A stretch of 45,509 nucleotides of DNA from an uncultured Myxococcales bacterium (GTDB lineage: Bacteria; Myxococcota_A; UBA9042; DTJE01). Under the pieces are notes generated by a model. That model did not search any database and was not told the DNA's origin. It worked only from the letters and a program-made list of their open reading frames with translations. Positions within the stretch are counted from its first letter, which is position 1. Every line of letters starts with the position of its first letter. The position numbers and the translations under genes are program-made. Of the stretch, positions 10,572 to 33,647 are shown in pieces. The stretch covers positions 1 to 45,509 of the forward strand of contig CAIZWN010000077.1 of assembly GCA_903936705.1 (NCBI GenBank), read 5' to 3'.

Positions 10572-10573
10572 CG

Positions 10574-14738: not shown

Positions 14739-17700
14739 TTCGCACCTCCATCCAGCGGTGCGTACAGAGGGGGCGCCTCGCGCAGGATGCGGCGGAACGC
14801 CTCGTGCCCGCGTGAGCGCCAGTCCGGGTACCAGTTGACCTTGTAGTTCGAGTCGAGCCCCGCCAGGAGTTCGAACCGGCGCTCCGGGAAGCGTCGCAGG
14901 AGCACCTCGAGGACACGGACCAGATCACCCGGGGACCAATCGAGCATCCGGTAAAGGATCATGCGGTCGAAGGCGTCCCACGAGGTGCTCTCGGCCTGCC
15001 GGACGAGGTAGTCGGTCGCTCTCGGGTCGCCGTGCTCCACGAGGATCTCCAGGGCCCGCTTCGTCCGCCCATCCCCGGCGCGCAGGACGCCATCGATTTC
15101 CGCGGCAGACGCCCGGCGCACCCACCACGCGAGGGCCTGTCCGCGGGGGGACAGGTCTTTCCACGAAGTGGAACCACCGGACGTGCTAGCGTCGACGATC
15201 AAGTCGGACAGGCCAAGGCGTTCCAGCCAATAGACCAGCGTCACGTTCACGTCATACTGCGAGAGGGAATCCAGGTGGGCCGGCATGGGAAGAGGCAGCC
15301 CGGCCGGCGCAGACGAGGGTTTCGCGTCCTGGTGCTGGGCGAGGCGGATGCGCCACAGCCGGGCCGCAGCATCGCGGAGCCAGGGCCATTCCTGGGGGTC
15401 CGCGGCGGACAGCAGGGTCAGGAGGGGTCCGTGGCCTCCCGTGGTCTGCCCGGGGTTGGCCGACTCCTCGTCGGAATGCGCGAACCCACAAGGTCCGGTA
15501 AAGGGGTCGGGGTCTTCCAGGGCCCAGGAACGAAGGGTGTCCCGGACCTGCACGCTGGTCGGTCGGTGGGCATGAAGCAAAGCCGCCCAGTAGGCCTGCC
15601 CCCGGGAACCCGATGCGGCCTCTGTCCACAGGTCCCTCAGCAGGTGCACGATTCGTGGATCGGCATGGAACTGTCGAGCTACGTTGTGCCGGAAGCCCGC
15701 TGAGGCCGTTCGGGCTCCGACGAAGACCCAGTCGCAGGGGAAGCCCGGGGCATTTCCGTGGCCCAGTCCAAGTTGCAGGATCTCCTCCCGCCGGGGTCCA
15801 TCAGCGCCGGCTTCCCATGCCGCGTCCAGGATCTCGAACTCCGAGGCCAGGCGGTCCTTCAACCACTTGGGAAGCGTGACACCCGGGTCGGTCGCCCAGT
15901 CGATGATCGGGGCGTAGTCACCCAGCGCCAGCAGAACCATGGCGGCATTTTCCCGGAGTTCCGCGTTCGCCCCTTCGCGCCACAGTCGCCTCAAGGCCTC
16001 GGGGTGCCCCAGGCTGTGGAACACGCTCGCGGCGTCGAGTCGATCGGCCAATTCCTTCCGGAACTCCACGAACCCAAGCCGTTCCGCGGCGAGGAGCGCG
16101 GCGCGGAGGGGAAGCGTCGGAGTATCGCCGAAGGCGGATGCACCGTGTTCGGCTCCGACCGACGCCCGGATCCAGTTCTTGACCGGGGAGCGGTGGCGCT
16201 TCTCCTGGACGCTGGCCTGGTGCAGGCGCACGAGGACCTCGGCAACCGCGTCTGGTTCCGGCCCCTGGTCGGGATGAATTGCTGCGGAGCGCAAGATCTC
16301 GGCAAGCGCGAGCACACCGCTGCCGGCCTTTCCGGCCCGACCGATCCAATCCATCCGGATTCGCATCGGGACTTCCCGCCAGGTCCGGAGCAGGTCCGAA
16401 TCCGGCGTTCGGCCCTTCGAGAAGACACCCTCCCCCGCGACAAAGGCCCGGGCGCCCAGGTGTCCGGCTTCCGCCGCCGCCCCGACGACCTCCGCCTCGT
16501 TCACCTTCTCGTCCCACTGCTCGAACCGTTGAAGGCGAGCGAATCGGGCATCTATGGGGAGGCACTGAGCCGGAGCCAAATGCTGGACCCAGGCCTCCTG
16601 GAATCTCCGCGCCCCAATCGCCCATTCCACGGATTCGCCCATGAACACTGCCGAACTCCAGGGACTGTCGGGCGACATCTCGACATCCTGTGGAAACCCG
16701 GCTTCCGGGATTCGCCAGCGACGGGCCGCCTCTCGGACCTCCACGGGAACGAAGGCTTCGACAGCCGCTACAAGGTCCGGACCGCCCAGTTCCGGCAGGA
16801 TGCCGATGTGGCGGATGGAGAGACGACGGAGCGTCCGGACCAGACCTTCGAAGTGTCCCGACCCCTCGATCCCATAGTACGTGGACGCAACCATGGCCGA
16901 GTAGGTTCCGAAGAGAGTCGTCCAGATCGCGGACGCCCAGGCCGGCAACAGCCATCTGCGGGCGATAGCCGGATCAAGATCTTCTTCGCAAGAGGCCAGG
17001 AACACCGCCAGCCACCGGTCGCGATCGACCCGCAGCCAGTCCGGCGCTTCCGCCAGGGCATCGGTGATCCTCCGAAGATCGTTCCCTGCGATTGCCATCT
17101 CCCGCGCCGAGTGGATCCAGTCGGATTCCAGAAGGCGTTCCCACCGGTCGATGCGGAAGCCGGTCCGCGCCAGCCCCCGGGCCGCCCATAGCAGGGATGT
17201 GGCCTGGTCCGGGGCCTCGACGGCATCCTCGTCCTGTACCAGGAGACCCCCGGCCAGCATCGCGTACAGCAGTGCCTCGCCTGTCGGTCGCTCCAGGTGG
17301 TGCCTCACCTCTTCGACCAACTTCCGGTCGGGCCGTGCCGACTCCTCTAGACGATCGAGGAGACGAACTACGCCTTCCCGCCCGACGTCGGGCCTGGCGA
17401 TGCCGCGCGTCGCCAGTTCCAATCGGGTCGCGGCTTCCGCGGGCGATACCCGGGTCCACGGTGCCATCGGCCCGTCCGCGAACAACCCGGCGAAGAAGTT
17501 CTCGAGCGCCTCCTCTCCCACCTTCTCCAGGCATTCCGAGGCGTCGCGGATTCGACAGGCGCGCGTCCAGGCGGCCCGGGTCTTCCATGCACGAATTTCG
17601 CCGCGCTGCGGGACCTTCCGGAGCCTGGCCGTCTCGGCCACGATCTCGATGACCTGGGTCGGCCAGGCGCTCTCCCCCAGCAGGTCCGGATCTTCGCCAA

Positions 17701-18772
17701 GGCGGTCAGCGAGTTCCCGGCATGCGAGGGCGCCCAAGGCATCGACCATCCCCCGTTCCTGGAGGAGGGCGACAAGGGCTTGAATATGAACGGGTCTCCA
17801 AGGCGTCAGTTCCAGCCCCAGGTCGCTGGTGCGGTCTCCGCGAAGGCGCTCGACCAGCGCGACGACGATCCCGCGATTCAGGGCTCGTGCGCGGGCCCAG
17901 CCTTCCGGCGGTTCCTGGTCCCGGAAGGTCCAACTCGGGACTGCGCCAGTGAAGGCCTCGATTTCCCGGTAGAGACGTTCTACCAAGGTGTGGCGACCCG
18001 AACCCGGGGGCCCCACGATCCATACCCAAGTCGGGGTTCCTTCGCGGAGGGCGTCGGCAATGATTTCGGTATATCGATTCAGGGCGCCCGGAAGGACGCG
18101 CTGGGCTCCGGCCGGCACTTCATCGTTCCGCGTCACCCGCACGATCGCTGGACCGGTTCCCGCCTCCGGGTCATTGAGGACAGGAAACTCTGGGTCATCC
18201 TTCTCCCCAATCCGGGCAAGTTCGCGCTGCAGACGGGAAATCAGAACCCGACTGCCCCCGTCGTACGAGTCGAGCACGAAGAGCCGGGGTGCGTCTCCGG
18301 TTGCTCCGGAGTTCTTCCACTCCCGGGATCGCTGCATGAGGCCTCCCGCCAGTGCGACGACATCGGGTTCGTCACCGTACAGGGCGGGATCCACCTCGAT
18401 CTCACCGCGCTCGATGGTCGGGAACGCGGGGTGCCAGGGGGCCTGTTCCTCTCCGGCCGCAGACCGCTCGTACAGGTCCAGCAGAGCAGTCGGGCTGACC
18501 CGGAGTTCCTGGGCAACCGCTTCCAGCCTTGGGTTAAAGGGAGGCCCGAACCACCTTCGAAGCGTCGGACGGTCCCCGTTCAGGAACCGGCTCAGTTCAG
18601 GCCGGTACAAGGCCTGGGCTCGTTCCAGGTCACGCCCCCTTCCCCGGGCCTGGGCAATGGCATCTGCCAGCGCCTTCTGTTCTTTGCCCTGCTGCCAGAA
18701 AAGCCGCAGAAGAGCCTTCTTCCAGCGTGCACGGCCAACTTCGTCCAGTTCGGGAATGCCAGAATCGGTCAT
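14723..18772 (-). CDS. Large HTH/P-loop (STAND-like) protein, 1349 aa
   Basis: Residues about 28-102 form a helix-turn-helix of XRE type (RPELSRFLNGDRPTLRRW, then LEAVAQELRVSPTALLDLY). A P-loop-like motif VGPPGSGRHT spans 253-262 after TPTWVW. The invariant Walker A lysine is replaced by Arg260. The remaining 1000 residues are helical, rich in Trp and Leu, and resemble the repeat sensor arms of STAND NTPases in general layout, but no named repeat family is certain. It lies between a DUF4258 gene and a double nuclease and overlaps the latter, which suggests a sensor-plus-effector defence system. The changed Walker lysine raises doubt about ATP hydrolysis. It could instead be a DNA-binding scaffold. 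Confidence 0.65.
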   Translation of the reverse strand: MTDSGIPELDEVGRARWKKALLRLFWQQGKEQKALADAIAQARGRGRDLERAQALYRPELSRFLNGDRPTLRRWFGPPFNPRLEAVAQELRVSPTALLDLYERSAAGEEQAPWHPAFPTIERGEIEVDPALYGDEPDVVALAGGLMQRSREWKNSGATGDAPRLFVLDSYDGGSRVLISRLQRELARIGEKDDPEFPVLNDPEAGTGPAIVRVTRNDEVPAGAQRVLPGALNRYTEIIADALREGTPTWVWIVGPPGSGRHTLVERLYREIEAFTGAVPSWTFRDQEPPEGWARARALNRGIVVALVERLRGDRTSDLGLELTPWRPVHIQALVALLQERGMVDALGALACRELADRLGEDPDLLGESAWPTQVIEIVAETARLRKVPQRGEIRAWKTRAAWTRACRIRDASECLEKVGEEALENFFAGLFADGPMAPWTRVSPAEAATRLELATRGIARPDVGREGVVRLLDRLEESARPDRKLVEEVRHHLERPTGEALLYAMLAGGLLVQDEDAVEAPDQATSLLWAARGLARTGFRIDRWERLLESDWIHSAREMAIAGNDLRRITDALAEAPDWLRVDRDRWLAVFLASCEEDLDPAIARRWLLPAWASAIWTTLFGTYSAMVASTYYGIEGSGHFEGLVRTLRRLSIRHIGILPELGGPDLVAAVEAFVPVEVREAARRWRIPEAGFPQDVEMSPDSPWSSAVFMGESVEWAIGARRFQEAWVQHLAPAQCLPIDARFARLQRFEQWDEKVNEAEVVGAAAEAGHLGARAFVAGEGVFSKGRTPDSDLLRTWREVPMRIRMDWIGRAGKAGSGVLALAEILRSAAIHPDQGPEPDAVAEVLVRLHQASVQEKRHRSPVKNWIRASVGAEHGASAFGDTPTLPLRAALLAAERLGFVEFRKELADRLDAASVFHSLGHPEALRRLWREGANAELRENAAMVLLALGDYAPIIDWATDPGVTLPKWLKDRLASEFEILDAAWEAGADGPRREEILQLGLGHGNAPGFPCDWVFVGARTASAGFRHNVARQFHADPRIVHLLRDLWTEAASGSRGQAYWAALLHAHRPTSVQVRDTLRSWALEDPDPFTGPCGFAHSDEESANPGQTTGGHGPLLTLLSAADPQEWPWLRDAAARLWRIRLAQHQDAKPSSAPAGLPLPMPAHLDSLSQYDVNVTLVYWLERLGLSDLIVDASTSGGSTSWKDLSPRGQALAWWVRRASAAEIDGVLRAGDGRTKRALEILVEHGDPRATDYLVRQAESTSWDAFDRMILYRMLDWSPGDLVRVLEVLLRRFPERRFELLAGLDSNYKVNWYPDWRSRGHEAFRRILREAPPLYAPLDGGAKCPAS

Positions 18773-19369: not shown

Positions 19370-19609
19370 CTATTTCTTTGCACCTGGCTTGGGTAGCAGC
19401 GACTTCCTCGAACGTTCTCGCTCGAGATCCACGCGAACCTGACGCTCGACGCGCGCTGCCTGCCCGATGCCACCGCCCAAGCCGAAGAAGAAGCCGCTCA
19501 CGTGGTCGATGAGCGCCGGCCCCCCCTCGTCCTTCATTCGTTGTACCACCCGGTTCTCGACCTCCTTCTCAAACGCGCGCTTCTCCCGCCATCTGTCGAA
19601 GATGCTCAT
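19370..19609 (-). CDS. Small charged protein (79 aa) at the end of the dynamin operon
   Basis: The frame is longer, but the ATG at 19609 is chosen because GGGAGG lies just before it and it overlaps the stop of the upstream gene (ATGA). The product starts MSIFDRWREKRAFEKEVENR. It has a short Gly/Phe-rich apolar stretch in the middle (HVSGFFFGLGGGIGQAA), flanked by highly charged helices. The apolar part is too short for a sure membrane span but could insert peripherally. No family is recognised. It is translationally coupled to the PHA-granule-like gene, so it likely acts with it. Confidence 0.6.
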   Translation of the reverse strand: MSIFDRWREKRAFEKEVENRVVQRMKDEGGPALIDHVSGFFFGLGGGIGQAARVERQVRVDLERERSRKSLLPKPGAKK

Positions 19610-19923
19610 GCGCACCTCCCGTGCGTGCTCGACAGCGCCTCGCAGCAGCGCAGAAAGGCCGGGACCCGCTGCCCGAGCTCCCGGTCGACTCGGCTCCGGA
19701 TGATTTCCAGCAGCCAACCGAGGTCGACATCGACGTGCACGATCCCGGGCAGCACGATGACGTGGACCTCGACACCGGGCCGGCACAGGAGGGAACCGTC
19801 CGCCCCCTCCCTGGTGACGACCAGGCCATGCTCCCGTGCACGCTCACCCAGTTCCTGTTCAATCTTCGCCACCACACCCTTGACCTCGGCCCGATGGACG
19901 AAGCTGTACCTTTTTGCTCCCAA
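19606..19923 (-). CDS. PHA-granule-protein-like small protein (PF09650-like), 105 aa
   Basis: The TTG at 19923 is preferred because GGAGG sits five to six bases before it and the product then begins LGAKRYSF, parallel to MGSKQYRF in the gene at 26132-26425. The layout matches the putative polyhydroxyalkanoic acid system family: a long helix (VKGVVAKIEQELGERA), a pair of strands, a G-V-E-V-H-V-I-V-L-P-G strand, then HVDVDLGWLLEIIRSRV. In that family the end helix follows a LGxLL motif. Proteins of this type are proposed to act at storage-granule surfaces; here no PHA synthase is nearby. It is downstream of two dynamin-like GTPase genes. Confidence 0.6.
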   Translation of the reverse strand: MGAKRYSFVHRAEVKGVVAKIEQELGERAREHGLVVTREGADGSLLCRPGVEVHVIVLPGIVHVDVDLGWLLEIIRSRVDRELGQRVPAFLRCCEALSSTHGRCA

Positions 19924-20095
19924 GCAAACCTCCAACGCTGCACCCGCCCGATGGGCGGGCATTGCTGATGCTCCGACTGCGGGCACTTCGCCAGAAGTCG
20001 GTTCCTTCTCTCTTATGGCGCTTTTGAGGCGGGTTTGCGCAAGGTGAGAACGCGAGGCAGGGTTCCAGTCCCTTCCCCGACCGGTGGGGGTCCGC

Positions 20096-21847
20096 CTAAC
20101 CCGCCGACGCGTGAATCTCCCGGATGAGCCGCTGGGTTTCCTCAAGCGCTTCGGACAGCGCGATCTGGAGTTTGGAAGCACGGTCCTCGGTTGCGTTCAA
20201 CTCCGTCACCTGCCGATCCACTTCCTGAATCTCCGGCGCAATCACGTCGCTGACGAACGAATCAGTGGCCTTGTCATAGTGGGTCTCGATCACATCGGCG
20301 GCCTCGCCGAAACTCGACCGAATCGCGTCGCGGGCTTGCGCAAGTTCCTTGCGTTGATTCTCGGCGTCAGAGTCCTCCTTGACCTGAAGCAGAACGCTGA
20401 TGACCGTGCCCGCAACTGAGAGGACGCGTCCGATGTTGGACACGGTCTTCGTCCACTTCACTGCTTGCCATGGCTTGAACGACTTGCCAAAGAGCTTCCC
20501 GGACGACTTGATGAAAGCGTGAACGTTCGTGCCGGAGTACTGCCTCAACCTGAAGATTCCGCCCAGCGTGGACTTTGCCCCGTTGAACGAGTGCGAGACG
20601 AGGAATTCGCCCAGTTTCGACGAAGCCTGGGCAGCTTTTCGGGCTTTGTCCCCGGTGGCAGGATCGATCTTGACCCTGGCTGCCGCAGCGTCAAGAGCGG
20701 CTGCAAGATGCGGTTTCAACAAATGGGCCAATTCGCTGTCGGCAATGTGTTCAAGATCCTTTTCGAGATCCTGGACCACGTCCCCGAAGGCCCGCGTCAA
20801 TCCCTTTTCGAGTTCTTCTGCGTAGTGATCGACCCGCTGTTGTGCGACCGCAATCGCTTGGTTCACTGCGGCCGAGTCGGCACCGCCATGCACGAGATCA
20901 GCGGTCTTGCGACCCTCGTCTCTAACCTTGCCCGTGCTCGACGTGATCTGCGTCCGGCCCGCCTGCCGAACTCGCAATCGGCCTTCATTGAGGGTACGTC
21001 TCTTCTGAATCAAGAGTTCCTTCAAGCCATCCTGTGCCTTGTCACCGGTTGAGGCCTTCGCGAGGGCTTCCTGAAGAACCTGCTCCAGTTCGTAAAGTGC
21101 TGTGGTGAAGCGACCAGCAAGGCCCTTCTCCCGAACGAACGTGTCGCAGGTATTGAGGAACGCACCCATTCCGCTGTCGGCCCAATCTTCTTCAGCTGTT
21201 TGCGGGTCCTGTTCCTTCCTGCTCTCAATAGCCATCTGGGCGTCAGTGAAGCAGAGCCTCATCCCCTCCGGAGTGAACGGCGCAAGCACCTTCCTGAGTG
21301 CCTCAGTGATGACGGCATGAGCAGCAAGGGTGTTGCCCTGCTGGGCACGGCTCATCTTGTTCACCACGAGCATCATCTCGTGGCCCTTGTCCCTTTCGAC
21401 AGCAAGCTTCCGGAAGTTCGCCGCGATGGTTTCGTCCATCAACTCGTTCGAAATGATGAAGACGAGCAGGTCAGCAGCCGCGATCGCCGCGTAGGAAGCC
21501 TCGTCATGGTCGGGCCGGAGACGTGTATGGATGCCGGGTGTGTCGAGGATCTCTACCCCATTCCAGGTATAGGTCTGCACTTCGTTCGTGGTGATGCCAG
21601 CACCGATCTGGATGTCGCTCCTTCCGGTCATCGCGGTGATCAAGCTTGACTTGCCCGCCGAGTACTGCCCGCAGAAGACGACGCGAGGCGTGTCGTTCTC
21701 GGCCAATGCAGAAGGAATCCTGGCGGCAAGTGCCCTGACATCCTCCGGAGTGGCGTCGGCGACAATGGTTCGGCCGCGAGCAAGGAGTTCCTGCCCGCGA
21801 CGACCAAATTCGGCCAACAGAAACGAATGGCTTCCTGTCGCGCTCAT
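20096..21847 (-). CDS. Dynamin-like GTPase B
   Basis: The ATG at 21847 overlaps the stop of the upstream GTPase gene (ATGA) with AGGAGG nearby, giving 583 aa. The GTPase domain shows G1 GQYSAGKSS (60-68), the switch Thr pair ITTNEV (85-90), G3 DTPG (102-105) and G4 NKMS (163-166). Long helices follow, as in the stalk of bacterial dynamin-like proteins, and an apolar stretch (VSNIGRVLSVAGTVISVLLQV) could touch or enter the membrane. Adjacent, coupled dynamin-like genes usually form a heteromeric pair that binds and reshapes membrane (known for Campylobacter DLP1/DLP2 and LeoA-type systems). In bacteria some act in phage tolerance. The family is sure; the role is inferred. Confidence 0.85.
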   Translation of the reverse strand: MSATGSHSFLLAEFGRRGQELLARGRTIVADATPEDVRALAARIPSALAENDTPRVVFCGQYSAGKSSLITAMTGRSDIQIGAGITTNEVQTYTWNGVEILDTPGIHTRLRPDHDEASYAAIAAADLLVFIISNELMDETIAANFRKLAVERDKGHEMMLVVNKMSRAQQGNTLAAHAVITEALRKVLAPFTPEGMRLCFTDAQMAIESRKEQDPQTAEEDWADSGMGAFLNTCDTFVREKGLAGRFTTALYELEQVLQEALAKASTGDKAQDGLKELLIQKRRTLNEGRLRVRQAGRTQITSSTGKVRDEGRKTADLVHGGADSAAVNQAIAVAQQRVDHYAEELEKGLTRAFGDVVQDLEKDLEHIADSELAHLLKPHLAAALDAAAARVKIDPATGDKARKAAQASSKLGEFLVSHSFNGAKSTLGGIFRLRQYSGTNVHAFIKSSGKLFGKSFKPWQAVKWTKTVSNIGRVLSVAGTVISVLLQVKEDSDAENQRKELAQARDAIRSSFGEAADVIETHYDKATDSFVSDVIAPEIQEVDRQVTELNATEDRASKLQIALSEALEETQRLIREIHASAG

Positions 21848-24015
21848 GCTTCTCCAACCTCCTGCCTTGAGTTCGACGTCTGCGACCATGGTTCTACCAA
21901 GACCTGAAGACCCGACAGTTGCTGCGCCATACGAATCCGCTCCGCGTTCAGTTCCTCGGGACGATCGCAACGGACATGAACTTGACCAACCTTGCTCTCG
22001 ATTCGGACGCCTCTGCGGGTGCATCCACGTCCAATCGCTTGCGCGATCATCGACTCTCGATCTCCGTTGTCGATGACAAACCAAACCGGTTCGTCCAACT
22101 GTTGCTCAAGGTCGGCTCTCAAGCCTCCAGGAAACTTCAACTCCGGGGGAATCAGAAGCATTGCTCCCATTCCGGGAACTCGAGCTACATCGCGAATGCC
22201 GGAAACGATCTCCTCCGCTCCAACATGCTTGGCCGCCTCCTCGACTAGTGAGCGACTCAGCTCTTTGGCACGGGAGTTCAGTTCGCCCGCCAGTCCCCTC
22301 TGGGCATCGGCGAGCGAGAACAGGGCATTGGTCACCAACCGGAGATCGGAGCGAACCTTCCGGATGCCGGATAGAAGCCCGGCATGGAACCACTGCTTCA
22401 ACGATCCTCGCAGTTCCTTTTCGATGCCCCACAGATGGTCGTTGAGCTTCCTTTCAAGGCGTGTCCGAGCCCGGCGTTCCTTTGCTTCGCGGTCGTCAAA
22501 GAGCCACGAGAAGAGCGCTCCGACCAAGCCGACTCCAGCGGCAGCCCAGCCCAATGGTCCGGAAGCCAGGATGAGAGCAGCGATGCCCAGACCGCCACTG
22601 ACGATCGTCACGCCCCAGTTCCAGATGCGTTTGGTATCTGTGATGCTTGCAGCCCGGACTCCGGGGACGCCAAGGTCCGCGGCGAGGTCCATTCCAACCT
22701 TGATCTCTCGGACCAGATCTCGTAGACGACCAGTCGCGAGTTCGTGAAGTGATTTCTGAAGGCCCTCGGCCTTTCGGTCGAGGCAAGCGTCACGAATCAC
22801 CTTCTCCCATTTGTCCTTCAACTGGGTGCTCTCAAGGTTGGCCTCGACAAAGCCAGGAACCCTCGCTCGGAGTCCGTCAACCCAGCTATGGACCCCAGTG
22901 TCGATCTGCTCCAAGGATTCCCGCACGAAACGGTCGGTCCATGAGTCGAATTCTCGGCCCTTGCCGATCAGCAACCGACCCGCACTGGAGTTCGCGGCGC
23001 TGAATTCGAACAATCGGTCAGCGAGACGCACTGCGGGCACGGCAGCGCAATCCAAGAACGTGCGGACCCGTAGCATCGCGCCCCTGCCCGCAACTTCCCG
23101 GCAGATTCTCTCTTCTACTTGGTCGAAGCGACTTGATCTTCGCAGGGCATCTCGATGTTCTGAGAATTCTGGGTGGTCGCTCAAGAAGCGGGACCGAAGG
23201 TGAACGGGTTGGAACCGAACCCGAACTTCGGGGGCTTCCGCGTAAATGAAATCCATGAATTGCCTTTCGATATCGCCGAGCCGCCGTGGGTCAAAGTGGC
23301 TTTCCGGGTCACGCAGAAACCTTTTGAGGCTTCGCGGATCGTCGATTCCAACCTTCACGTTGCATACCCCAAGCACCGGCTTACCGAGCCGCCTGACGTT
23401 GACCAGGTGCTCGGCCTCGACAGGTTGTGGGGCATCGTCGGTTATCAAGAAGAGTACCAGGTCCGCTTTCTCCGCCGAGGCGAATGCTACCTGGGCATCT
23501 CCTTGGCCTTCGAAGGCTGCGATTCCTGGGACATCCGTGATGTCCAGCCCTCGCCATCGGTAGGTCCGAACATCACGAGTGGTTCGCTGGGCACCCTTCC
23601 CGATTGACTCGCCATTGCCTCTGGTCAGGATCTCCATGAGCGTGGACTTCCCGGCCATGGTTCGCCCGAACAGCGTGATCGAGAACTGCGCCAAGTGGTT
23701 CGCGTGCTGCTGAAGTCGCTGCTCGGTCTCGCTTTGAACCCCACGAAGTCCACTCATGACTTCGGCAAGTTGTTCCCTGAGCCGAACGGTCGTTTCCTGC
23801 GACTCGAGGTCGGCTTGGTCGAAACTGTCGAGGCTCTCGCGCAGCGAACGTTCTGCGTCCTTGAGCGCACCAGATGACTTCTCCAGGCTCTTGAAAGCCA
23901 GTTGGTGCCCCTTCTTGGCCGCTCTATGGCACTGTTCCAGCGCTCCTTCGAGGTCCTTGGTCGCCTGCTGATCGGGTCGCATCCGCAAGTCCTCCAGCAG
24001 CGGGTCGAGATACAC
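21844..24015 (-). CDS. Dynamin-like GTPase A with membrane hairpin
   Basis: This 723-aa product starts with a 110-residue coiled-coil-like region, then the GTPase domain: G1 GRTMAGKST (117-125), RTTRDV with the switch Thr (144-149) and G3 DVPG (161-164). The N-V-K-V at 219-222 stands where G4 (N/TKxD) is expected and is degenerate. A hydrophobic stretch at about 465-506 (GLGIAALILASGPLGW, then VGLVGALFSWLF) looks like a paddle or two-pass membrane insert, followed by a basic region. The only reasonable start is the GTG at 24015. A stop precedes it by about 17 codons and its ribosome-binding site is weak. It is coupled to the second GTPase, so the two probably form a hetero-oligomer at the inner membrane. 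Confidence 0.85.
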   Translation of the reverse strand: MYLDPLLEDLRMRPDQQATKDLEGALEQCHRAAKKGHQLAFKSLEKSSGALKDAERSLRESLDSFDQADLESQETTVRLREQLAEVMSGLRGVQSETEQRLQQHANHLAQFSITLFGRTMAGKSTLMEILTRGNGESIGKGAQRTTRDVRTYRWRGLDITDVPGIAAFEGQGDAQVAFASAEKADLVLFLITDDAPQPVEAEHLVNVRRLGKPVLGVCNVKVGIDDPRSLKRFLRDPESHFDPRRLGDIERQFMDFIYAEAPEVRVRFQPVHLRSRFLSDHPEFSEHRDALRRSSRFDQVEERICREVAGRGAMLRVRTFLDCAAVPAVRLADRLFEFSAANSSAGRLLIGKGREFDSWTDRFVRESLEQIDTGVHSWVDGLRARVPGFVEANLESTQLKDKWEKVIRDACLDRKAEGLQKSLHELATGRLRDLVREIKVGMDLAADLGVPGVRAASITDTKRIWNWGVTIVSGGLGIAALILASGPLGWAAAGVGLVGALFSWLFDDREAKERRARTRLERKLNDHLWGIEKELRGSLKQWFHAGLLSGIRKVRSDLRLVTNALFSLADAQRGLAGELNSRAKELSRSLVEEAAKHVGAEEIVSGIRDVARVPGMGAMLLIPPELKFPGGLRADLEQQLDEPVWFVIDNGDRESMIAQAIGRGCTRRGVRIESKVGQVHVRCDRPEELNAERIRMAQQLSGLQVLVEPWSQTSNSRQEVGEA

Positions 24016-24229
24016 CCCGCCGGAAAGTTCCCGTTTGCCATACAGTGGCCGGAAAGATGGGCTGAATCATCTCACCCGCCTTTGCGCACGGCAACCCGTC
24101 CGATCGACCGATCGGTTCGAATTTCGTCCTTGCTAGGCCACTCTACCCCGTTGTCCTACCCGAAAACCCCGCAGCAGCTGAAAACGTTGGGTTTGAGGCC
24201 GACGACGAACCCAGGTATCGTGCCCAGCC

Positions 24230-24490
24230 ATGAAGGACTTCCTGCAACTCTTGGTGTCGTTTGCTGCCACGACCTTCCGCCACCGGGGGTCGCTGGAGGT
24301 TCAAGGTTCTCGCGCTGCGGCAACAACTGGCGGTGCACCAGCGGAAGGGAACCGCCCACGTACCCCGGCCAGCCGACCGCATTCTCTGGTCCTGGCTTTC
24401 TCGGGTTTAGCCACGCTGGCGGGACGCGCTGGTCATCGTGAAGCCCGCCACGGTCATCGCGTCGCAGGGGAAACGGTCTCGGGACGGCGT
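24230..24490 (+). pseudogene. Relic of an IS transposase (integrase-core type)
   Basis: From about 24288 the plus strand reads RWRFKVLALRQQLAVHQRK, then PRPADRILWSWLSRV, a TAG stop, and PRWRDALVIVKPATVIA. This is the N-terminal signature of a common integrase-core transposase, in which WSWLSRVWPRWRDALVIVKP and WHRKGF normally follow. The TAG replaces Trp, and the frame loses similarity after VIA. A start-like segment at 24230 (MKDFLQLLVSFAATTFRHRG) is in another frame, so a frameshift is also present. No catalytic DDE domain or inverted repeats remain. The relic fills the gap between the dynamin pair and the membrane-protein genes. Confidence 0.7.
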
Positions 24491-24492
24491 GG

Positions 24493-25167
24493 TCAGAGAA
24501 GCCAGATCCCAAGAGCCGCCGCGATGACCCCAACGAGCATCACCAGACAACCCGCCCCCCCTTCCCCGTCGGATGAGAGGATGGCCCCAAACACGAAGAC
24601 GACGATGGCGATAAGGTAGGCCGCGTACTTCGCGAGCCAGCCATACCAGTTTCCGACCCGCGACTGGTACAGGTTCTCCCACGTCCATCCCTCGCCGCCG
24701 CTCTCCTTGTGCGTTGAGGCCATTCCGTCCGCAGGGTGAACGGGGAGTTGCTTCTGGATTGGTTCTGGCGCCACGTTCTCGGTCTGGGGTGCCGTTCGCG
24801 GTGGCTCCGATGGTGGTGCGGCGGGAGTTGCCGCAGGCACGGGAGGTACTTCAGCTCCCATCGTGATCAGCATGTCCGCGTAGAGCCTCGATTCATCGCC
24901 TTTGCCTAGCTTCCGCAGGGCGACGACGAGGTTTCGAAGTATCTCGGGATGCTCCTTGGGTACGACAAGGATCAGGGCCCCCTTGTATAGGCGAACCGCA
25001 TCCTCGATCTGTCCATCGTCGAAAGCTGCGTTCGCCTGCTCGAACAGCCCGCGCGAATCCCGCTGATCAGTCGGTGTTGTCTGGCTCCAAACGTCTCCGC
25101 CGAACTGAAGGGTGGCCGCGACCACCACGGTGAGACCCAGAATCGACCGAACAGAACTCGAAGTCAT
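24493..25167 (-). CDS. TPR-like protein with signal peptide and C-terminal membrane segments
   Basis: The 224-aa product begins with a secretion signal (ILGLTVVVAATLQFGGDVWSQ). A helical pair resembling a TPR unit follows (FEQANAAFDDGQIEDAVRLY, then EILRNLVVALRKLGKGDES). A Pro-rich linker leads to a WTWENLYQSRVGNWYGW segment and two membrane helices (AAYLIAIVVFVFGAIL and CLVMLVGVIAAALGIWLL). It would be periplasmic with a membrane anchor. The ATG overlaps the stop of the upstream lipoprotein gene, so they are coupled. The role is unknown. TPR units usually bind partner proteins, perhaps the small proteins of the same cluster. Confidence 0.65.
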   Translation of the reverse strand: MTSSSVRSILGLTVVVAATLQFGGDVWSQTTPTDQRDSRGLFEQANAAFDDGQIEDAVRLYKGALILVVPKEHPEILRNLVVALRKLGKGDESRLYADMLITMGAEVPPVPAATPAAPPSEPPRTAPQTENVAPEPIQKQLPVHPADGMASTHKESGGEGWTWENLYQSRVGNWYGWLAKYAAYLIAIVVFVFGAILSSDGEGGAGCLVMLVGVIAAALGIWLL

Positions 25168-25748
25168 CTGGCCTTACCTCCTACTGTTGGCGCGGCTATA
25201 GGCGCCGTTGGCATCGACCAGGCCCTGTCGATCCCTGATTCCTTCCTTGTGGGCAGTGCCGGATCTGGCTCGTTGCCCCATCTTCTGGTTATCTCCGTGC
25301 CGCCGGTCGATGCGGGCGCTGGTGGCGTACCCAGCGCCTTTGCGGACATGCCCTCATCGTCAGCGCCTGAGTTCTCAATGGGAGCAGGTCCAGATACCCC
25401 GACGGGTACGGCCGTTGACTCCTTTGGAACCTGTCTGGTCGAGATCTGAATTATTTCCGAACCACATTCGGCGCCGTCCATTAGCCCAGCGATGTAAAGC
25501 GCGGGCTGCGTCAAGGGGAGGGATGACGACAACACCCAAGTCAGGAGCAGGATGTTTATGAAGACCCCGATGGCATTGGCGACGGCGACAAGCGCGACGG
25601 CAAGAAGCAGGTAGACGATGATGACAATCGTGTACCCGACTACCGTCGACATAGTTGAGCAAGAATGCTCGCATCCACAGAGGCATGATAGGAAGCCAAA
25701 CATCAGAAGGACTGGCGACCGCATCATCCGCGTCTTCAGCAAGCCCAT
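25164..25748 (-). CDS. Membrane protein with lipobox-like Cys, 194 aa
   Basis: The N-terminus MGLLKTRMMRSPVLLMFGFL leads into SCLCGC, where Cys26 could be lipidated (lipobox LCGC is acceptable but not ideal). Two strongly hydrophobic stretches follow (VGYTIVIIVYLLLAVALVAVA and GVFINILLLTWVLSS), then a Pro/Ser/Thr-rich tail of about 90 residues with no hydrophobic segment. The combination of lipobox and several membrane helices is odd; it may instead be a plain three-helix membrane protein. A G-rich ribosome-binding site (GGGGGGAC) precedes the ATG. It is coupled to the TPR-like gene (ATGA overlap). No family recognised. Confidence 0.6.
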   Translation of the reverse strand: MGLLKTRMMRSPVLLMFGFLSCLCGCEHSCSTMSTVVGYTIVIIVYLLLAVALVAVANAIGVFINILLLTWVLSSSLPLTQPALYIAGLMDGAECGSEIIQISTRQVPKESTAVPVGVSGPAPIENSGADDEGMSAKALGTPPAPASTGGTEITRRWGNEPDPALPTRKESGIDRAWSMPTAPIAAPTVGGKAR

Positions 25749-25766
25749 CGTGTCCCCCCTGACTGT

Positions 25767-26072
25767 TCAACGAGTGGTGACTGCCGCGCGCACCCCTTGC
25801 GCCCTCAAGCTCTCGGAGATTTCCCTGACGACGCGGCCCTCGAAGAACACGCCCTTGAACCCACCCACGTCGATTTCGATGCGGCCCGGGCCCGCGACAC
25901 GAACGGTCGCGCTCACGCTCTTGGCGGCCAGGCCATCCCGCAACCTGGAAGCGATGTCAGAATCAACTCTCCCTGCGACGTCCATTCCGAATTGCTCAGC
26001 CAGCCACGTCATGACACCGCCTTCGTGCCTGGATGCCAGGTCGTGCTGGTTGAGGATCATGACGACAATCAT
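25767..26072 (-). CDS. Small protein (101 aa), PHA-granule-like fold suspected
   Basis: AGGAGG five bases before the ATG at 26072 decides this start (MIVVMILNQHDLASRHEGG). The ATG at 26012 (MTWLAEQFGMD), also with a GGCGG nearby, would give 81 aa and better matches its homologues in length. The product has a helix (VDSDIASRLRDGL), strands (SVSATVRVAG, RIEIDVGGFKGVF) and an end helix (GRVVREISESLRAQG). This order resembles the small proteins at 19606-19923 and 26132-26425, but the sequence similarity is weak. It belongs to the same minus-strand operon. Confidence 0.5.
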   Translation of the reverse strand: MIVVMILNQHDLASRHEGGVMTWLAEQFGMDVAGRVDSDIASRLRDGLAAKSVSATVRVAGPGRIEIDVGGFKGVFFEGRVVREISESLRAQGVRAAVTTR

Positions 26073-26131
26073 CTGCCCTCCTGGCAGTTCATCTGGCGCC
26101 GCAGCCCCACGCACGGAAACGCCGGATCGAC

Positions 26132-26425
26132 CTACGCCCGTTCGCACTCCCGCAGCATCTTCGGCATGCCCAGGTTCAATCCCGCCTCAAGCTTGGCGCG
26201 GAACGGCTCCGCCACCCAGGCGAGGTCGCCGACGACAACCAGTTCCGATGTGCCGATCGTGAACGTCAACTCGGCGCCAGTCCTCTTGAGCCTGAACTCC
26301 CTGTCCGAGACCCGGGTCAGGGTCATCCCCTGGTCCGCTGCCTGGCTCTGAAGGTCACGAAGGAGCCGATCAGCTACCTTCATGGCGTCCGCGTTGTGCG
26401 AAAAGCGGTACTGCTTGCTGCCCAT
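26132..26425 (-). CDS. PHA-granule-protein-like small protein (PF09650-like), 97 aa
   Basis: The product MGSKQYRFSHNADAMKVADR is parallel to the protein at 19606-19923: similar N-terminus, a long helix, strand REFRLKRTGAELTFTIG, then ELVVVGDLAWVAEPFRAKLEAGL. The last part matches the strand, LGxLL-like turn and end-helix order of the putative polyhydroxyalkanoate-system family. AGGAGG four to five bases before the ATG supports the start. As a diverged paralogue within the dynamin/membrane cluster it suggests that several such subunits work together. A storage-granule role is not supported by any neighbour. Confidence 0.6.
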   Translation of the reverse strand: MGSKQYRFSHNADAMKVADRLLRDLQSQAADQGMTLTRVSDREFRLKRTGAELTFTIGTSELVVVGDLAWVAEPFRAKLEAGLNLGMPKMLRECERA

Positions 26426-26565
26426 GATGCCTCCTCATGGCCCTTGAACCTACGTGTGCTTCTCACGGTTGAGCCACCCGGAACCGATCTGATGATGGTC
26501 CAAGGTTCTTATCGCGGCTTTCCCCGGGCACTTGCGCTCAGCATGCGCAGGGTTTCGCATCCTCC

Positions 26566-26853
26566 CTACTTCGAGCACTTCTCGATGAGGTTCAGTACCG
26601 TTTCTTCGATGCCGTCCTCGATTCTTCCGGAGACCAGCGAGGCGGGGAAACTCAAGTCCCCCTTCACGATGATCTTCGTGGCCGTGACCTTCGCGGTCAC
26701 GTCCGCTCCTTTGCCTTCGACCTGGAACTCCACGTCCGACAGCTCGGTGAACTCGAGGCCGTATTCCCTTGCCTTCTTCTTGATCTCGGCCTTGCACTTT
26801 GGCGCCAAGACGAACACCTCCAGGCTGTGACCGAACCTGCGGTTGATTTTCAC
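26566..26853 (-). CDS. PHA-granule-protein-like small protein (PF09650-like), 95 aa
   Basis: The start is the second of two tandem GTG codons. AAGGAGG lies eight bases before it (five before the GTG at 26856), and an upstream ATG would need an unlikely basic leader. The product VKINRRFGHSLEVFVLAPKC leads into a long helix (KAEIKKKAREYGLEF). Strands follow (DVEFQVEGKGADVTAKVTATKI), then VKGDLSFPASLVSGRIEDGIEETV. The domain order and length agree with the putative polyhydroxyalkanoate-system family. It is the first gene of the minus-strand group that diverges from the XRE regulator, so it is probably controlled by that regulator. Confidence 0.6.
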   Translation of the reverse strand: MKINRRFGHSLEVFVLAPKCKAEIKKKAREYGLEFTELSDVEFQVEGKGADVTAKVTATKIIVKGDLSFPASLVSGRIEDGIEETVLNLIEKCSK

Positions 26854-27026: not shown

Positions 27027-27350
27027 ATGCAGAAGCAGTTCGGGAAGCGGCTCCGTGATCTTAGGTTGGCAAGGAATTTGACCCAGCCCAAACTCGCCGA
27101 GCGGAGCGGTGTCGCCGAGAAGTATCTGTCCGACATCGAACGCGGCAAGGTCAACGTCTCGTTGACGATCATGACCCGACTGGCCGTGGGCCTCGGCGTC
27201 CCGGTCAAGGAGTTGTTCGCGGTGGACGCGGAGCCGACCGGCGATGACGACCGGCAGGTCGCCCGGGACCTCGTGGCCGCGATCACCGTCACCGCCGACG
27301 ACGAGAAGGCCGCACGCCTCCGGCTGTTCCTGGAGCGGGTATTCCGCTGA
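27027..27350 (+). CDS. XRE-family HTH transcriptional regulator
   Basis: A 107-aa protein with a canonical XRE/Cro helix-turn-helix in residues 1-65: FGKRLRDLRLARNLTQPKLA, SGVAEKYLSDIERGKVNVSL, then LAVGLGVPVKELF. The C-terminal 35 residues are acidic and helical, perhaps for dimerisation. The ATG follows GGAGGG. It diverges from the small-protein/membrane/dynamin cluster and is probably its repressor or activator. No cleavage or ligand domain is visible. A 10-bp palindrome, tgaccggtca, overlaps its stop codon. Confidence 0.85.
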   Translation: MQKQFGKRLRDLRLARNLTQPKLAERSGVAEKYLSDIERGKVNVSLTIMTRLAVGLGVPVKELFAVDAEPTGDDDRQVARDLVAAITVTADDEKAARLRLFLERVFR

Positions 27351-27752: not shown

Positions 27753-29087
27753 ATGACGACAAGGACCAGGCAGGTCAGCCAGGCGCATGACGAGTCGATG
27801 ATCGCCCTGGAGCCGCCGGACGACCAGGACTGGACCGCCACGCTCTTGCGGCTGGACACCCAGGCGAAGGAGCAGGACGGCAAGGGCCGCACGGCCCAGG
27901 TGGCCGCCAACAAGAGCCGCGTGGAACTTGGCATGGTGCTGCTGGCCCACCAGCCTCCCAAAGGCAAGCGCGGCGACCCGACCCGCACGAACTGGCAGAT
28001 GGAGCGCGCCAAGGACCTCAACTGCGACGAGCGCTTCGTCCGCCACCTGATCGCGACCGCCGACACGATGAGCAAGTCTGGATTGGAACGAAAAGTTCCA
28101 ATCGAGATCCTCGACCGGGACTTCAAGCGCGTCAGGCTCGCCGTGAGGCGCTATCAGGAGCACGGCGACCCGGACTGGAAGGCGCCGAAGGACGACACAT
28201 CCACCTCCGGGCCTGCGGGGGCCGATAGCCGGCAGGTGAAGTTCCTGAAACTCGCCGAGAATGCCCGGAAACTGGCCGCCGAGGCCCGCGAGGCTGACCC
28301 GGAGAACGAGTTCTGGGCCAAGGCGTCCGAGTGGCTGGACTGCGTGCCCGAGCCGGTGCTCTCGGAGGGTAATGTCCAGCCCGGCGAGGAGCAGAACTCT
28401 ATGGGAGGTCCGATCGCGGTGCTCGACCTGGACGAGCGCACCACGAAGGCTCTGGAGCGTGCGGGCATCTCGATGGTCGGGGACGCCGCGGCACGGTCCG
28501 ATACGGAACTCCTCAAGGTCCGCGACCTGGGCAGGAAGGGGCTCAAGCAGATCCGGGCGGCGCTGGCCCGCCTGGGGCTTCGCCCTGCCCAGAAGGGTGT
28601 CGAACCCGTGACCTGCGGGCCTGCGAGTCGGGATGCCGCCGCGTTGACTGCTGGCATGGTGGCCCCCGCGGACGTGGGGTCGACGAACGAATCCGAGAAG
28701 ACGACCGTCGTCGTCCGTGTCGTCAACCCCAACAAGGTACCCGAGAAGCCGACCACCATCAGTGTCGTCTATCCGGAAAACAAGGTGCCCGCGAAGCCGA
28801 CCGTCGTCCGGTTGGTACCCGAGGTCGTGGCGGATATCCTGCCGAAGGACACGCGCATCCGGCTGCTGGCCGGCATCTACAAGGGCTGCACGGGCGACAT
28901 CCAGCGGTTCGTCAAGAAGTACGGATACGAGGTTCGCTACATCGTGGACATGGTGGGCGGCAAACTGGACTTCAAGCGCGGCAAGGGCGGGAAGATGGCC
29001 AGGACCTACGTGAGCCCCGGTACGCGTGGCCAGACGTGGGAGGTCGTGCCGTTGAAGGGGAATCGTGATGGCGACCGGCACCTCTGA
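27753..29087 (+). CDS. RNA polymerase alpha-CTD-like / KOW-like fusion protein
   Basis: The ATG at 27753 has GGGGAAGG about ten bases before it (444 aa). Residues about 50-135 form a basic helical domain (WQMERAKDLNCDERFVRHL). Residues 219-277 match the C-terminal domain of the RNA polymerase alpha subunit: LDLDERTTKALERAGIS, then ARSDTELLKVRDLGRKGLKQ. The Arg that contacts UP-element DNA (E. coli R265) aligns with R229 and the GxK turn with G260/K262; E. coli N268 is Lys here. The C-terminal 75 residues (RIRLLAGIYKGCTGDIQRF through TYVSPGTRGQTWEVV) look like a KOW/SH3 barrel and are shared with the protein at 34726-35268. It may alter host or element transcription. Domain calls are good; role inferred. 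Confidence 0.75.
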   Translation: MTTRTRQVSQAHDESMIALEPPDDQDWTATLLRLDTQAKEQDGKGRTAQVAANKSRVELGMVLLAHQPPKGKRGDPTRTNWQMERAKDLNCDERFVRHLIATADTMSKSGLERKVPIEILDRDFKRVRLAVRRYQEHGDPDWKAPKDDTSTSGPAGADSRQVKFLKLAENARKLAAEAREADPENEFWAKASEWLDCVPEPVLSEGNVQPGEEQNSMGGPIAVLDLDERTTKALERAGISMVGDAAARSDTELLKVRDLGRKGLKQIRAALARLGLRPAQKGVEPVTCGPASRDAAALTAGMVAPADVGSTNESEKTTVVVRVVNPNKVPEKPTTISVVYPENKVPAKPTVVRLVPEVVADILPKDTRIRLLAGIYKGCTGDIQRFVKKYGYEVRYIVDMVGGKLDFKRGKGGKMARTYVSPGTRGQTWEVVPLKGNRDGDRHL

Positions 29088-29226
29088 CGGAACGGACACC
29101 GCGCCCGCCGTCAACGCCGGCGTGTACGTGCTGGTTCTCGAGTTCCCCGACGCCGTGCGGGTCCGTGTCGGCGCCCTCGTTTGCAGGTCACATGCCATGG
29201 CCGATTCGGCCGGAGAAGCAAAGTGA
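29068..29226 (+). pseudogene. 5' fragment of a DUF123 (GIY-YIG-like) gene, cut off by the defence cassette
   Basis: ATG at 29068 starts MATGTSDGTDTAPAVNAGVY, then VLVLEFPDAVRVRVGAL, which is the N-terminus of DUF123 proteins (normally followed by an FPAGxYxYVGSA motif). After codon 37 (about 29178) the similarity ends and 15 unrelated codons lead to a stop that overlaps the next gene. The remainder of the domain is not found in the window. The breakpoint marks the left edge of the HEPN/CBASS/WYL cassette. Confidence 0.65.
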
Positions 29227-30017
29227 GCAAGCTCAGGATTGCCCTCCTCGACAATTCCCAAGGCTTCTTCCAACATGCCCTCCGTAGCGCTATCGACGCA
29301 GAGATGGTGGACCGAGAATGGAAATACGCTATCCTGTTCATGGTTCAGGCGATTGAACTCGCCTTGAAAGAGGCGCTTGTCCGTGCCCATCCCCTCCTCG
29401 TCTTCGAAGATGTCGACAAGCGCGGCCGCACGGTGAGTTTGTTGAAGGCGGTTCCTCGTCTCCAGTCGACGCTGGGCGACAGAATCGATAAGAAGGACGT
29501 CGATGCAATTGCGTCTGCCGCCCGCTGGAGGAATGACCTGGTACATCACGAGTTCGAAGGCGACACCGACCACCTGAAGTCCGGTTTCGGCAGGCTCATG
29601 GGGTTCTACCTTGAGTTCTGCCGAGAACTCCTTGGTCACGATGTTGCAGGCGAAGTAGAAGAAGTGCTTCGCAAAGAGATCCTGGAAATTGAAGGGTACA
29701 GGAATCACTTGTCGGAGCGGGCGAGACTGAATCTTGACCGTGAAGGTATCACCGCCCCGAACGTCTGGGAGTGTCCTGGTTGCGGGATCGAAGCCTTCGT
29801 CGTGCAGGGTGGCAGGAACCAGTGCATCGTCTGCGGGTACTCTGAGCGCGTGCTTGCCTGCGACGAGTGCGGAACCATCACGTTCGAACGTGGCTTCGAG
29901 AAAGTCTACTGCGGTAATCACAAGGGACTTGATGCCTACCGCCTCGTTTGCCTTGACTGTCTATACCGGGGTCAAGAGGACTGGGAAGAGCGCAATGCCC
30001 GCGAGTGGTACGGCTGA
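29223..30017 (+). CDS. HEPN-like domain protein with zinc ribbons
   Basis: The 264-aa protein (GTG start, GGAG upstream) has an N-terminal helical domain with WKYAILFMVQAIELALKEAL and WRNDLVHHEFEG. R103-N-D-L-V-H108 fits the Rx4H signature of HEPN RNases. From residue 184 it carries successive zinc-knuckle pairs: CPGC, CIVC, CDEC, CGNH and CLDC (184-246). HEPN proteins with such tails occur as RNA-cutting toxins or abortive-infection effectors. It is convergent with the CBASS operon and lies at the cassette edge. HEPN assignment is moderate; a pure structural HEPN without RNase activity is the alternative. Confidence 0.6.
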   Translation: MSKLRIALLDNSQGFFQHALRSAIDAEMVDREWKYAILFMVQAIELALKEALVRAHPLLVFEDVDKRGRTVSLLKAVPRLQSTLGDRIDKKDVDAIASAARWRNDLVHHEFEGDTDHLKSGFGRLMGFYLEFCRELLGHDVAGEVEEVLRKEILEIEGYRNHLSERARLNLDREGITAPNVWECPGCGIEAFVVQGGRNQCIVCGYSERVLACDECGTITFERGFEKVYCGNHKGLDAYRLVCLDCLYRGQEDWEERNAREWYG

Positions 30018-30041: not shown

Positions 30042-31586
30042 CTACTCGATGTTGATGAAGAACTCGCCGCTGCGCGCCACGCAGACCGAGTCCTTCACAA
30101 CGAAGCACTCAATCCAGTGCTTGCCACGGTACCTAGTCGTCTCCTGCTGGACAGATTGCCCCTTGAAGATTGTGCCCCGCAGCCCCCGATCTGCTTCCGC
30201 CTCCCTCCCTGTGTTCACAACCTGCCAGAACAGGTCGAAAGGGTGCTCGACCTCTGCCCGGGCTTCGAACGCCAGATTGATTCCTTTCGGCAGCCTGGAC
30301 CGATTACTGTTGAACGTGAACGTTCGAAATCCCTTCCTGGAGCCCTGAGCCGCAAGTCGAACACGATGGCGAAGGTCAAGCGGCCATGGTGGCCGCACTC
30401 CATGACTGGCCTCGGGGCGGACTGCCTTCGCGGCCACAGTCGTCATCGTTCCACCGGGAAGACCACGCCGTTCGAGCACCTCCCGTGCTACCCGGGCTCC
30501 AAATGGGTTGGTAAGCGACTCCTCAAGCTCCGGCGAGCCAACAGCCTCACCAAGCACGCGCAGATCGTTCGACAGCCACTCAAGCCAGGTGAAGAACGCT
30601 TCCGCCTTCGCGCTCTCCGGCTCGTTCCACCGATCCGCCAGGTTCTCACCGGGATCGACCGGGTTCTTGAGCAGCCACTTGCCGTCCTGCTTCAAGATAA
30701 TCCCAGTTGTCGCGTACCTGCGGATGCGACCCACGACGCCTGTCAAAGCGCTTTGGACGTCAGGCTCTTGCCTGTAGGACAGCCCTGCCAGGGCAGTGAT
30801 GAGAATGGAGGCTGGCTTCTCGCTGTCATTCTGGAGCCCGCAGAACCGACTGTCCCGGTGTCTCTTGAGGAGTTGCACGGTTCGTTGCAACGGCGTACGG
30901 ACCAGTGCATCCGGAACCGCCTCGATGCTGGCGAATACCCGTCGATGTTGCTCAAAGAGCCGCTGCTTCTGGATCGCGGCCATCTCGACAAGCATTGGTC
31001 GGTTGATCGCGTTGAACCAAGTGGCGAATCCCTCGGGGTTCGAGTGCAGCCAACGGTACGCCCCATCCAACTTCTCCGTGATGGCGATCGCGCGATCGGC
31101 GAGGTCAACACCAACACCCGCCTCCCTGAGAATTCGGCGACGTTCGTCGTCTTCGGGGATCGCTGCCAGGACATCCATGTGGAACCCGATCCCGTCCTGT
31201 TCAGCGTACTCGAGGGTCCAGCAACGCCGACCCTCTTTATCCAGCATCTTAGAGTACGTTTCATGCTCTTTGAGGCGATCGCCCACGAGTTCCTTGACGG
31301 ATCGTGGTGTCGTGTCCGGTTTCCCAAGGGAGAGCTTGCAGACCACGTCAATGTCGTACTCGCCCTCGGAGTCCCCTCTGATTGGGCGAATAACCGTACC
31401 CATCCTGAAGGAACCTTGGGAGTGAAATACCGGCTTGAGCTTTCCAGTCGAAGATCCGGGGTCGCATAACCACTTCCCGACCGCCGTGTAGCGCTCAACT
31501 GCTTGCTGGTACTTGCTGGGCGGGATGTCGAGGCTCTCCGCCAGATCGTTGAGCAGTCCGGCAACCGAATCTTGAGAGTTCGCCAT
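30042..31586 (-). CDS. CBASS CD-NTase (cGAS/DncV-like nucleotidyltransferase)
   Basis: The 514-aa enzyme shows the CD-NTase core: GSFRMGT (58-64), EYDIDVV with metal-binding Asp78 and Asp80, and a third Asp in FHMDVLAA (D138). The C-terminal 110 residues (PLDLRHRVRLAAQGSRKGF through RSGEFFINIE) match the AGS-C sensor domain attached to SMODS nucleotidyltransferases. On phage infection such enzymes make a cyclic di- or trinucleotide that activates a SAVED effector, here the neighbouring HNH-SAVED protein 12 bases upstream. The nucleotide made cannot be read from sequence. No Cap2/Cap3 or HORMA/TRIP13 regulators are present. Confidence 0.9.
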   Translation of the reverse strand: MANSQDSVAGLLNDLAESLDIPPSKYQQAVERYTAVGKWLCDPGSSTGKLKPVFHSQGSFRMGTVIRPIRGDSEGEYDIDVVCKLSLGKPDTTPRSVKELVGDRLKEHETYSKMLDKEGRRCWTLEYAEQDGIGFHMDVLAAIPEDDERRRILREAGVGVDLADRAIAITEKLDGAYRWLHSNPEGFATWFNAINRPMLVEMAAIQKQRLFEQHRRVFASIEAVPDALVRTPLQRTVQLLKRHRDSRFCGLQNDSEKPASILITALAGLSYRQEPDVQSALTGVVGRIRRYATTGIILKQDGKWLLKNPVDPGENLADRWNEPESAKAEAFFTWLEWLSNDLRVLGEAVGSPELEESLTNPFGARVAREVLERRGLPGGTMTTVAAKAVRPEASHGVRPPWPLDLRHRVRLAAQGSRKGFRTFTFNSNRSRLPKGINLAFEARAEVEHPFDLFWQVVNTGREAEADRGLRGTIFKGQSVQQETTRYRGKHWIECFVVKDSVCVARSGEFFINIE

Positions 31587-31598
31587 CGAGTTCCTCCA

Positions 31599-33554: not shown

Positions 33555-33620
33555 TGGAAGGCATGCTCCTTCCACTCCCCTTGCATCATGGGGGGTATGG
33601 CGGCACGATTCCCGCCGATC
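33555..33620. promoter_or_regulatory. Divergent operator region between YdjM-like and WYL genes
   Basis: An inverted repeat TGGAAGG-catgct-CCTTCCA occupies 33555-33574. A second site at 33600-33620 (core CGGCACGATTCCCGCCG) resembles the palindromes at 43947-43967 and 45118-45138, agreeing at 14 of 21 positions with the first. It lies 28 bases before the WYL gene. WYL proteins (CapW type) repress CBASS genes by binding inverted repeats, so both are good operator candidates. Confidence 0.5.
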
Positions 33621-33647
33621 TCGATCATTTTTGCGCGGGGGTGCGAC

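What the first reader, a model, noticed from the sequence alone, without database searches (positions are those of the whole stretch)
19370..26853. Paired dynamin-like GTPases clustered with several PHA-granule-like small proteins: candidate undescribed system
Sequence shows two coupled dynamin-like GTPases (G1, switch Thr and G3 motifs clear in both). On both sides lie small proteins of about 95-105 aa with the helix-strand-LGxLL-helix order of the putative polyhydroxyalkanoate-system family, plus a signal-peptide TPR-like protein and a multi-helix membrane protein, all on one strand. A divergent XRE regulator faces them. Dynamin pairs reshape membranes; no PHA synthase or phasin is nearby. 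Inference: the small proteins may be membrane- or inclusion-binding adaptors of a membrane-remodelling system, perhaps for phage defence.
Basis: partly seen in the sequence, partly recalled or inferred. Interest (0 to 1): 0.85.

Follow-up and report, generated by a model that had tools for sequence, protein, structure and literature searches.

The report
Known Eleos dynamin pair, unusual neighbours
The two membrane-shaping enzymes are a known two-gene bacterial anti-phage system (Eleos) inside a defence island, and the small "storage-granule-like" proteins beside them are real relatives of each other but do not accompany this system in any other genome examined.

Summary
The observation largely holds; the claim of an undescribed system does not. 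The GTPase pair at 20096-24015 matches PADLOC LeoA (E 6.7e-109) and LeoBC (E 3.1e-87), the two components of the known anti-phage system Eleos, in the usual order (leoBC then leoA, overlapping). PF09650 is found in 50 of 52 genomes of this class, yet no PHA synthase was found in this genome (96% complete), so the "PHA granule" label has no support here. Among 83 other LeoA loci, 81 keep the LeoA-LeoB pair and none has relatives of the small, TPR or membrane proteins nearby. A 477-base gap also separates leoB from the upstream genes. The region is a defence island with CBASS genes, a PD-(D/E)XK nuclease gene pair and integrase fragments. What remains is a local curiosity: three PF09650-like paralogues around an Eleos pair, seen in one genome only.

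The parts
21844..24015 (-). leoB(C): dynamin-like GTPase, 723 aa from GTG (true start may be ATG 23982)
   Evidence: PADLOC LeoBC E 3.1e-87 over residues 44-600; MMR_HSR1 5.5e-12; 38% identical to the LeoB of L009
20096..21847 (-). leoA: dynamin-like GTPase, 583 aa; ATG overlaps the leoB stop (ATGA)
   Evidence: PADLOC LeoA E 6.7e-109; PDB 4AUR LeoA E 7.3e-8; 45-49% identical to LeoA-like proteins in several other lineages
26566..26853 (-). sm1: PF09650-like small protein, 95 aa
   Evidence: PF09650 E 1.4e-5, 25.7 bits against a cut-off of 26.6; related to sm2 and sm4
26132..26425 (-). sm2: PF09650-like small protein, 97 aa, N-terminus MGSKQYRFSH
   Evidence: PF09650 E 0.044; 34% identical to the genome's own C67 copy, E 8e-11
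19606..19923 (-). sm4: PF09650-like small protein, about 105 aa from a TTG start (118 aa from ATG 19962)
   Evidence: PF09650 E 1.3e-5, at the cut-off; 31% identical to the C67 copy
25767..26147 (-). sm3: small protein next to or overlapping sm2 (101 aa from ATG 26072, 126 aa from GTG 26147); not a PF09650 relative
   Evidence: no Pfam hit; shuffle Z 1.8 or less against all others; single-sequence model pLDDT 56
25164..25748 (-). multi-helix membrane-like protein, 194 aa
   Evidence: weak MIP match, below cut-off; besides itself only one weak partial match in 361 genomes of the phylum
24493..25167 (-). TPR protein with an N-terminal signal-like stretch and C-terminal hydrophobic stretches, 224 aa
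   Evidence: TPR_16 E 2.3e-5, below cut-off; no relative in the other 51 class genomes nor in plasmids
19370..19609 (-). sm5: 79-aa ORF whose start overlaps the sm4 stop
   Evidence: no family for 19370-19600
27027..27350 (+). XRE-type regulator, divergent

Best explanation
The GTPase pair is a LeoA/LeoBC (Eleos-type) anti-phage module. Two different dynamin-like GTPases, made from overlapping genes, probably pair through their GTPase domains and act on the inner membrane in a GTP-dependent way when phage infection perturbs it, limiting phage spread or lysis. It sits in a mobile defence island. The three PF09650-like proteins are divergent copies of a family this bacterial class carries as ordinary chromosomal genes. 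They and the TPR and membrane genes most likely form separate cargo of the island rather than parts of the GTPase system. Shown: family identity, gene order, conservation of the pair without the neighbours, defence-island context, paralogy of the small proteins. Inferred: membrane action, phage trigger, and independence of the neighbouring genes.
For: LeoA E 6.7e-109 and LeoBC E 3.1e-87. Crystal-structure relative 4AUR LeoA. In ETEC, LeoC-LeoB lie upstream of LeoA and are proposed to form a heterotypic pair (PMC4159319). 81 of 83 related loci keep the A-B pair, and none has sm, mem or tpr relatives. No recurrent third gene across 36 LeoA clusters. Window neighbours include a CD-NTase and a SAVED endonuclease of CBASS and a PD-(D/E)XK nuclease, and integrase fragments. 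Relatives lie beside HsdR (L009), BrxC and a Tn7-like transposon (L052), and a conjugation gene (L044). Only 4 of 379 genomes of the phylum, this one included, have a LeoA match, and the best matches elsewhere (49%) are closer than the best other one in the phylum (37%), which suggests horizontal gain. PF09650 is in 50 of 52 class genomes.
Against: LeoA scores only 66 bits against the NCBIfam LeoA subfamily cut-off of 325, so it is a divergent member. No phage test exists for this locus. All neighbours are on one strand, and three PF09650 paralogues around one GTPase pair is unusual (the only contig with two PF09650 hits among 52 class genomes), so a local functional link cannot be excluded.
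Confidence: 0.85

Rival explanations
1. An expanded Eleos variant: the PF09650-like proteins, TPR protein and membrane protein are lineage-specific accessory parts (membrane adaptors or sensors) of this particular leoBA locus.
For: All on one strand between the XRE gene and sm5; sm1, sm2 and sm4 are paralogues on both sides of leoBA; the only contig with two PF09650 hits among 52 class genomes.
Against: None in 83 other LeoA loci; 477-nt gap before leoB and 133-172 nt after leoA; the other two copies in this genome lie beside unrelated genes.
Confidence: 0.12
2. The upstream block sm1-sm2-sm3-mem-tpr with the XRE gene is a separate, uncharacterised envelope or defence module that happens to sit beside Eleos in the island. 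(This is compatible with the best explanation and only says more about the neighbours.)
For: Tight spacing inside sm2-sm3-mem-tpr, a large gap to leoB, a divergent regulator at its head; several other defence genes share the island.
Against: No PADLOC family hits the block beyond general XRE models and weak Cas6 noise; no relatives found from which to test co-conservation.
Confidence: 0.35
3. A PHA (storage granule) associated membrane system.
For: PF09650 carries that name; edge-level matches of the small proteins.
Against: No PhaC_N and no class III PHA synthase found in this 96% complete genome; in its family 12 of 13 genomes have PF09650, but none has PhaC_N and only one has a class III synthase match, below cut-off.
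Confidence: 0.02

Closest known systems
Eleos (LeoA + LeoBC dynamin-like anti-phage system)
   Same: Both proteins match the PADLOC component profiles over nearly full length; gene order leoBC-leoA; overlapping tandem genes; defence-island setting
   Different: Flanked by PF09650-like, TPR and membrane genes not seen beside any of 83 relatives
ETEC LeoABC (tia locus; PMC4159319; PDB 4AUR)
   Same: Same LeoA family and tandem arrangement
   Different: leoC and leoB are split there and are one gene here; proposed role there is vesicle release; different flanking genes
PF09650 / TIGR02610 'putative polyhydroxyalkanoic acid system protein'
   Same: sm1 and sm4 score close to the cut-off; similar length and a predicted helix-four strands-helix order (low-confidence model)
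   Different: sm2 is well below the cut-off and the TIGR02610 cut-off is not met by any; no PHA synthase found in the genome; copies lie beside Eleos

Membership tests
Eleos (LeoA/LeoBC) | LeoA component present | tested here: met
   PADLOC LeoA 363.5 bits, E 6.7e-109, residues 97-659 of the long ORF
Eleos (LeoA/LeoBC) | LeoBC component adjacent and upstream | tested here: met
   PADLOC LeoBC 292 bits, E 3.1e-87; ATGA overlap with leoA
Eleos (LeoA/LeoBC) | GTPase motifs G1, G2, G3 intact in both | tested here: met
   Read from the alignments; MMR_HSR1 over cut-off in both
Eleos (LeoA/LeoBC) | Phage protection | not testable with these tools
   needs an infection assay
NCBIfam LeoA/HP0731 subfamily (NF041922) | Curated cut-off of 325 bits | tested here: not met
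   66 bits, E 3e-18: homologous but outside that narrower subfamily, so it is not filed there
PF09650 (PHA_gran_rgn) | Profile score at or above the gathering cut-off (26.6 bits) | tested here: inconclusive
   sm1 25.7, sm4 25.8 (26.6), sm2 14.5, sm3 none
PF09650 (PHA_gran_rgn) | Homology to undisputed members | tested here: met
   sm1, sm2 and sm4 relate to the C5 and C67 copies, which pass the cut-off
TIGR02610 (PHA system protein) | Cut-off of 40.25 bits and association with PHA synthesis genes | tested here: not met
   best 20.7 bits; no PhaC_N or class III synthase found in the genome

The most novel reading that the evidence does not exclude
The PF09650-like paralogues and the TPR/membrane genes are a lineage-specific add-on that recruits or controls the LeoA/LeoB dynamins at the membrane, making an extended Eleos variant and giving PF09650 a membrane-adaptor role.
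Probability: 0.1. Interest if true: 0.6.

Novelty: new member of a known kind. Interest (0 to 1): 0.27.

Why it matters
It places a rare Eleos pair (4 of 379 sampled genomes of its phylum have a LeoA match) in a defence island and shows that the pair is a portable two-gene unit. It also shows that the name 'polyhydroxyalkanoic acid system protein' misleads here: the family is near-universal in this class, while no PHA synthase was found in this genome. That family has no assigned function and may be worth study in its own right.

Tried and rejected
Single-protein scan of genome contigs for LeoA found nothing; the alignment-based scan solved that. Weak PADLOC hits of sm2 to Cas6 and sm4 to a cyclase were rejected as noise: single weak stretches. 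AlphaFold of sm1 with three rows gave pLDDT 55, and Foldseek found nothing at E 0.001 (best 0.32; kinetochore, KA1 and profilin-like hits), so no fold claim is made beyond a tentative helix-four strands-helix order. sm3 alone gave pLDDT 56. Rfam found no RNA family in the window; the promoter and terminator scan found no more than shuffled sequence. The tpr protein has no match in plasmids and sm2 none in phages.

Full report
What is there. On the minus strand from 26853 down to 19370 lie sm1, sm2, sm3, a membrane-like protein (mem), a TPR protein (tpr), leoB, leoA, sm4 and sm5, with an XRE gene facing away at 27027-27350. The tight junctions are sm2/sm3 (overlap if the early GTG start is used), sm3/mem (18 nt), mem/tpr (overlap), leoB/leoA (ATGA overlap) and sm4/sm5 (overlap). 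The loose ones are sm1-sm2 (140 nt), tpr-leoB (477 nt, no convincing ORF) and leoA-sm4 (133-172 nt, depending on the start).

The GTPases. Protein 20096-21847 matches PADLOC LeoA at E 6.7e-109 and protein 21844-24015 matches LeoBC at E 3.1e-87. LeoA also finds the LeoA crystal structure 4AUR. NCBIfam's narrower LeoA/HP0731 subfamily is hit below its cut-off, so this is a divergent member. In ETEC, leoC and leoB lie upstream of leoA and are proposed to form a second dynamin that works with LeoA (PMC4159319). Eleos is described as a dynamin-like defence system (PMC11811056). A single bacterial dynamin, DynA, has been reported to give phage resistance in Bacillus subtilis (PMC8844932, title and start of abstract only). 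That Eleos is a published anti-phage system made of LeoA and LeoBC also rests on my own knowledge of the defence-system literature.

Do the neighbours belong? An alignment-based scan returned 80 LeoA loci from genome contigs of many lineages, and three more came from the window's phylum. Of these 83, 81 have LeoB next to LeoA on the same strand. None encodes a relative of sm1, sm2, sm3, sm4, sm5, mem or tpr by blastp (E 0.01), and a PF09650 profile built here finds nothing significant in them. Some of these loci are short contigs, so their flanks are incomplete. Clustering genes within 4 kb over 36 LeoA clusters (60% identity) gives no family present in more than 4 of them. One of the phylum genomes with LeoA (G049) has no PF09650 match at all. 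So Eleos is a two-gene unit with variable neighbours.

The small proteins. sm1, sm2 and sm4 are related to each other and to two other copies in the genome (C5 and C67), with shuffle Z-scores of 8 to 22. sm2 and sm4 are close to the C67 copy (34% and 31%), and share the N-terminal pattern M-G/A-x-K-x-Y-x-F-x-H with C67 and C5; sm4 probably starts at TTG 19923. sm3 and sm5 are unrelated. PF09650 occurs in 227 of 361 genomes of the phylum and 50 of 52 of the class. In the class list every other multi-copy genome has its copies on different contigs; the window is the only contig with two. No PhaC_N match and no class III PHA synthase was found in this genome, which is 96% complete. The other two copies lie beside a sugar transferase and a DUF302 gene (C5) and beside nadA (C67). 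The PHA label therefore carries no functional information here.

Setting. The island holds a CD-NTase with AGS_C sensor and a SAVED endonuclease (CBASS, 30042-32774), a PD-(D/E)XK nuclease gene overlapping a 1349-aa gene (12738-18772), a PDC-S64 candidate (29223-30017), a WYL-domain gene (33597-34655) and integrase fragments (570-863, 2348-2845). Related Eleos pairs lie beside HsdR (L009), beside BrxC and a TnsA/rve/TniB/TniQ set (L052), and near a TraH gene (L044).

Mechanism. Most likely LeoA and LeoB form a heterotypic dynamin pair acting on the inner membrane during infection; this is inferred from family knowledge, not tested. The role of the small proteins is open. Independence is more likely than a link to Leo, because the pair recurs elsewhere without them and the gaps are large, but a local add-on cannot be excluded.

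Verdict.

Noticed in passing
30042-32774 (-): CBASS gene pair: CD-NTase with AGS_C sensor (PADLOC cyclase E 9.9e-152) and SAVED endonuclease effector (E 2.1e-151).
   Followed up: partly
12738-18772 (-): PDDEXK_13/REase-ARP nuclease (E 1.1e-79) overlapping a 1349-aa protein with only a weak AAA_16 match; possibly a separate two-gene defence system absent from PADLOC.
   Followed up: partly
5202-12480 (+): A 1221-aa helicase-like protein (Herpes_ori_bp E 8.7e-12) followed by ORFs on the same strand; the three tested have no Pfam or PADLOC family.
   Followed up: no
35447-37792 (+): A short (781 aa) DnaE-like polymerase, 76% identical to another copy at G000:C20; the genome has four DnaE-like genes, two of them in much longer frames. 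Genes after it look like SbcD and SbcC by eye.
   Followed up: partly
570-863 and 2348-2845 (+): Phage-integrase fragments at the left end, probable remnants of island mobility.
   Followed up: no
27798-29087 and 29223-30017 (+): A 429-aa protein with an RNA polymerase alpha C-terminal-like domain, followed by a PDC-S64 candidate defence protein.
   Followed up: no
L052:1198-11425: Neisseria elongata: Eleos pair behind a Tn7-like TnsA/rve/TniB/TniQ set, next to a BREX brxC; Eleos as possible transposon cargo.
   Followed up: partly
L012:9044-9322, L013:8458-8742 and the class list: PF09650 is near-universal in this class (50 of 52 genomes) while PhaC_N is missing from all 13 genomes of the window's family; the family likely has a non-PHA role there.
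   Followed up: partly
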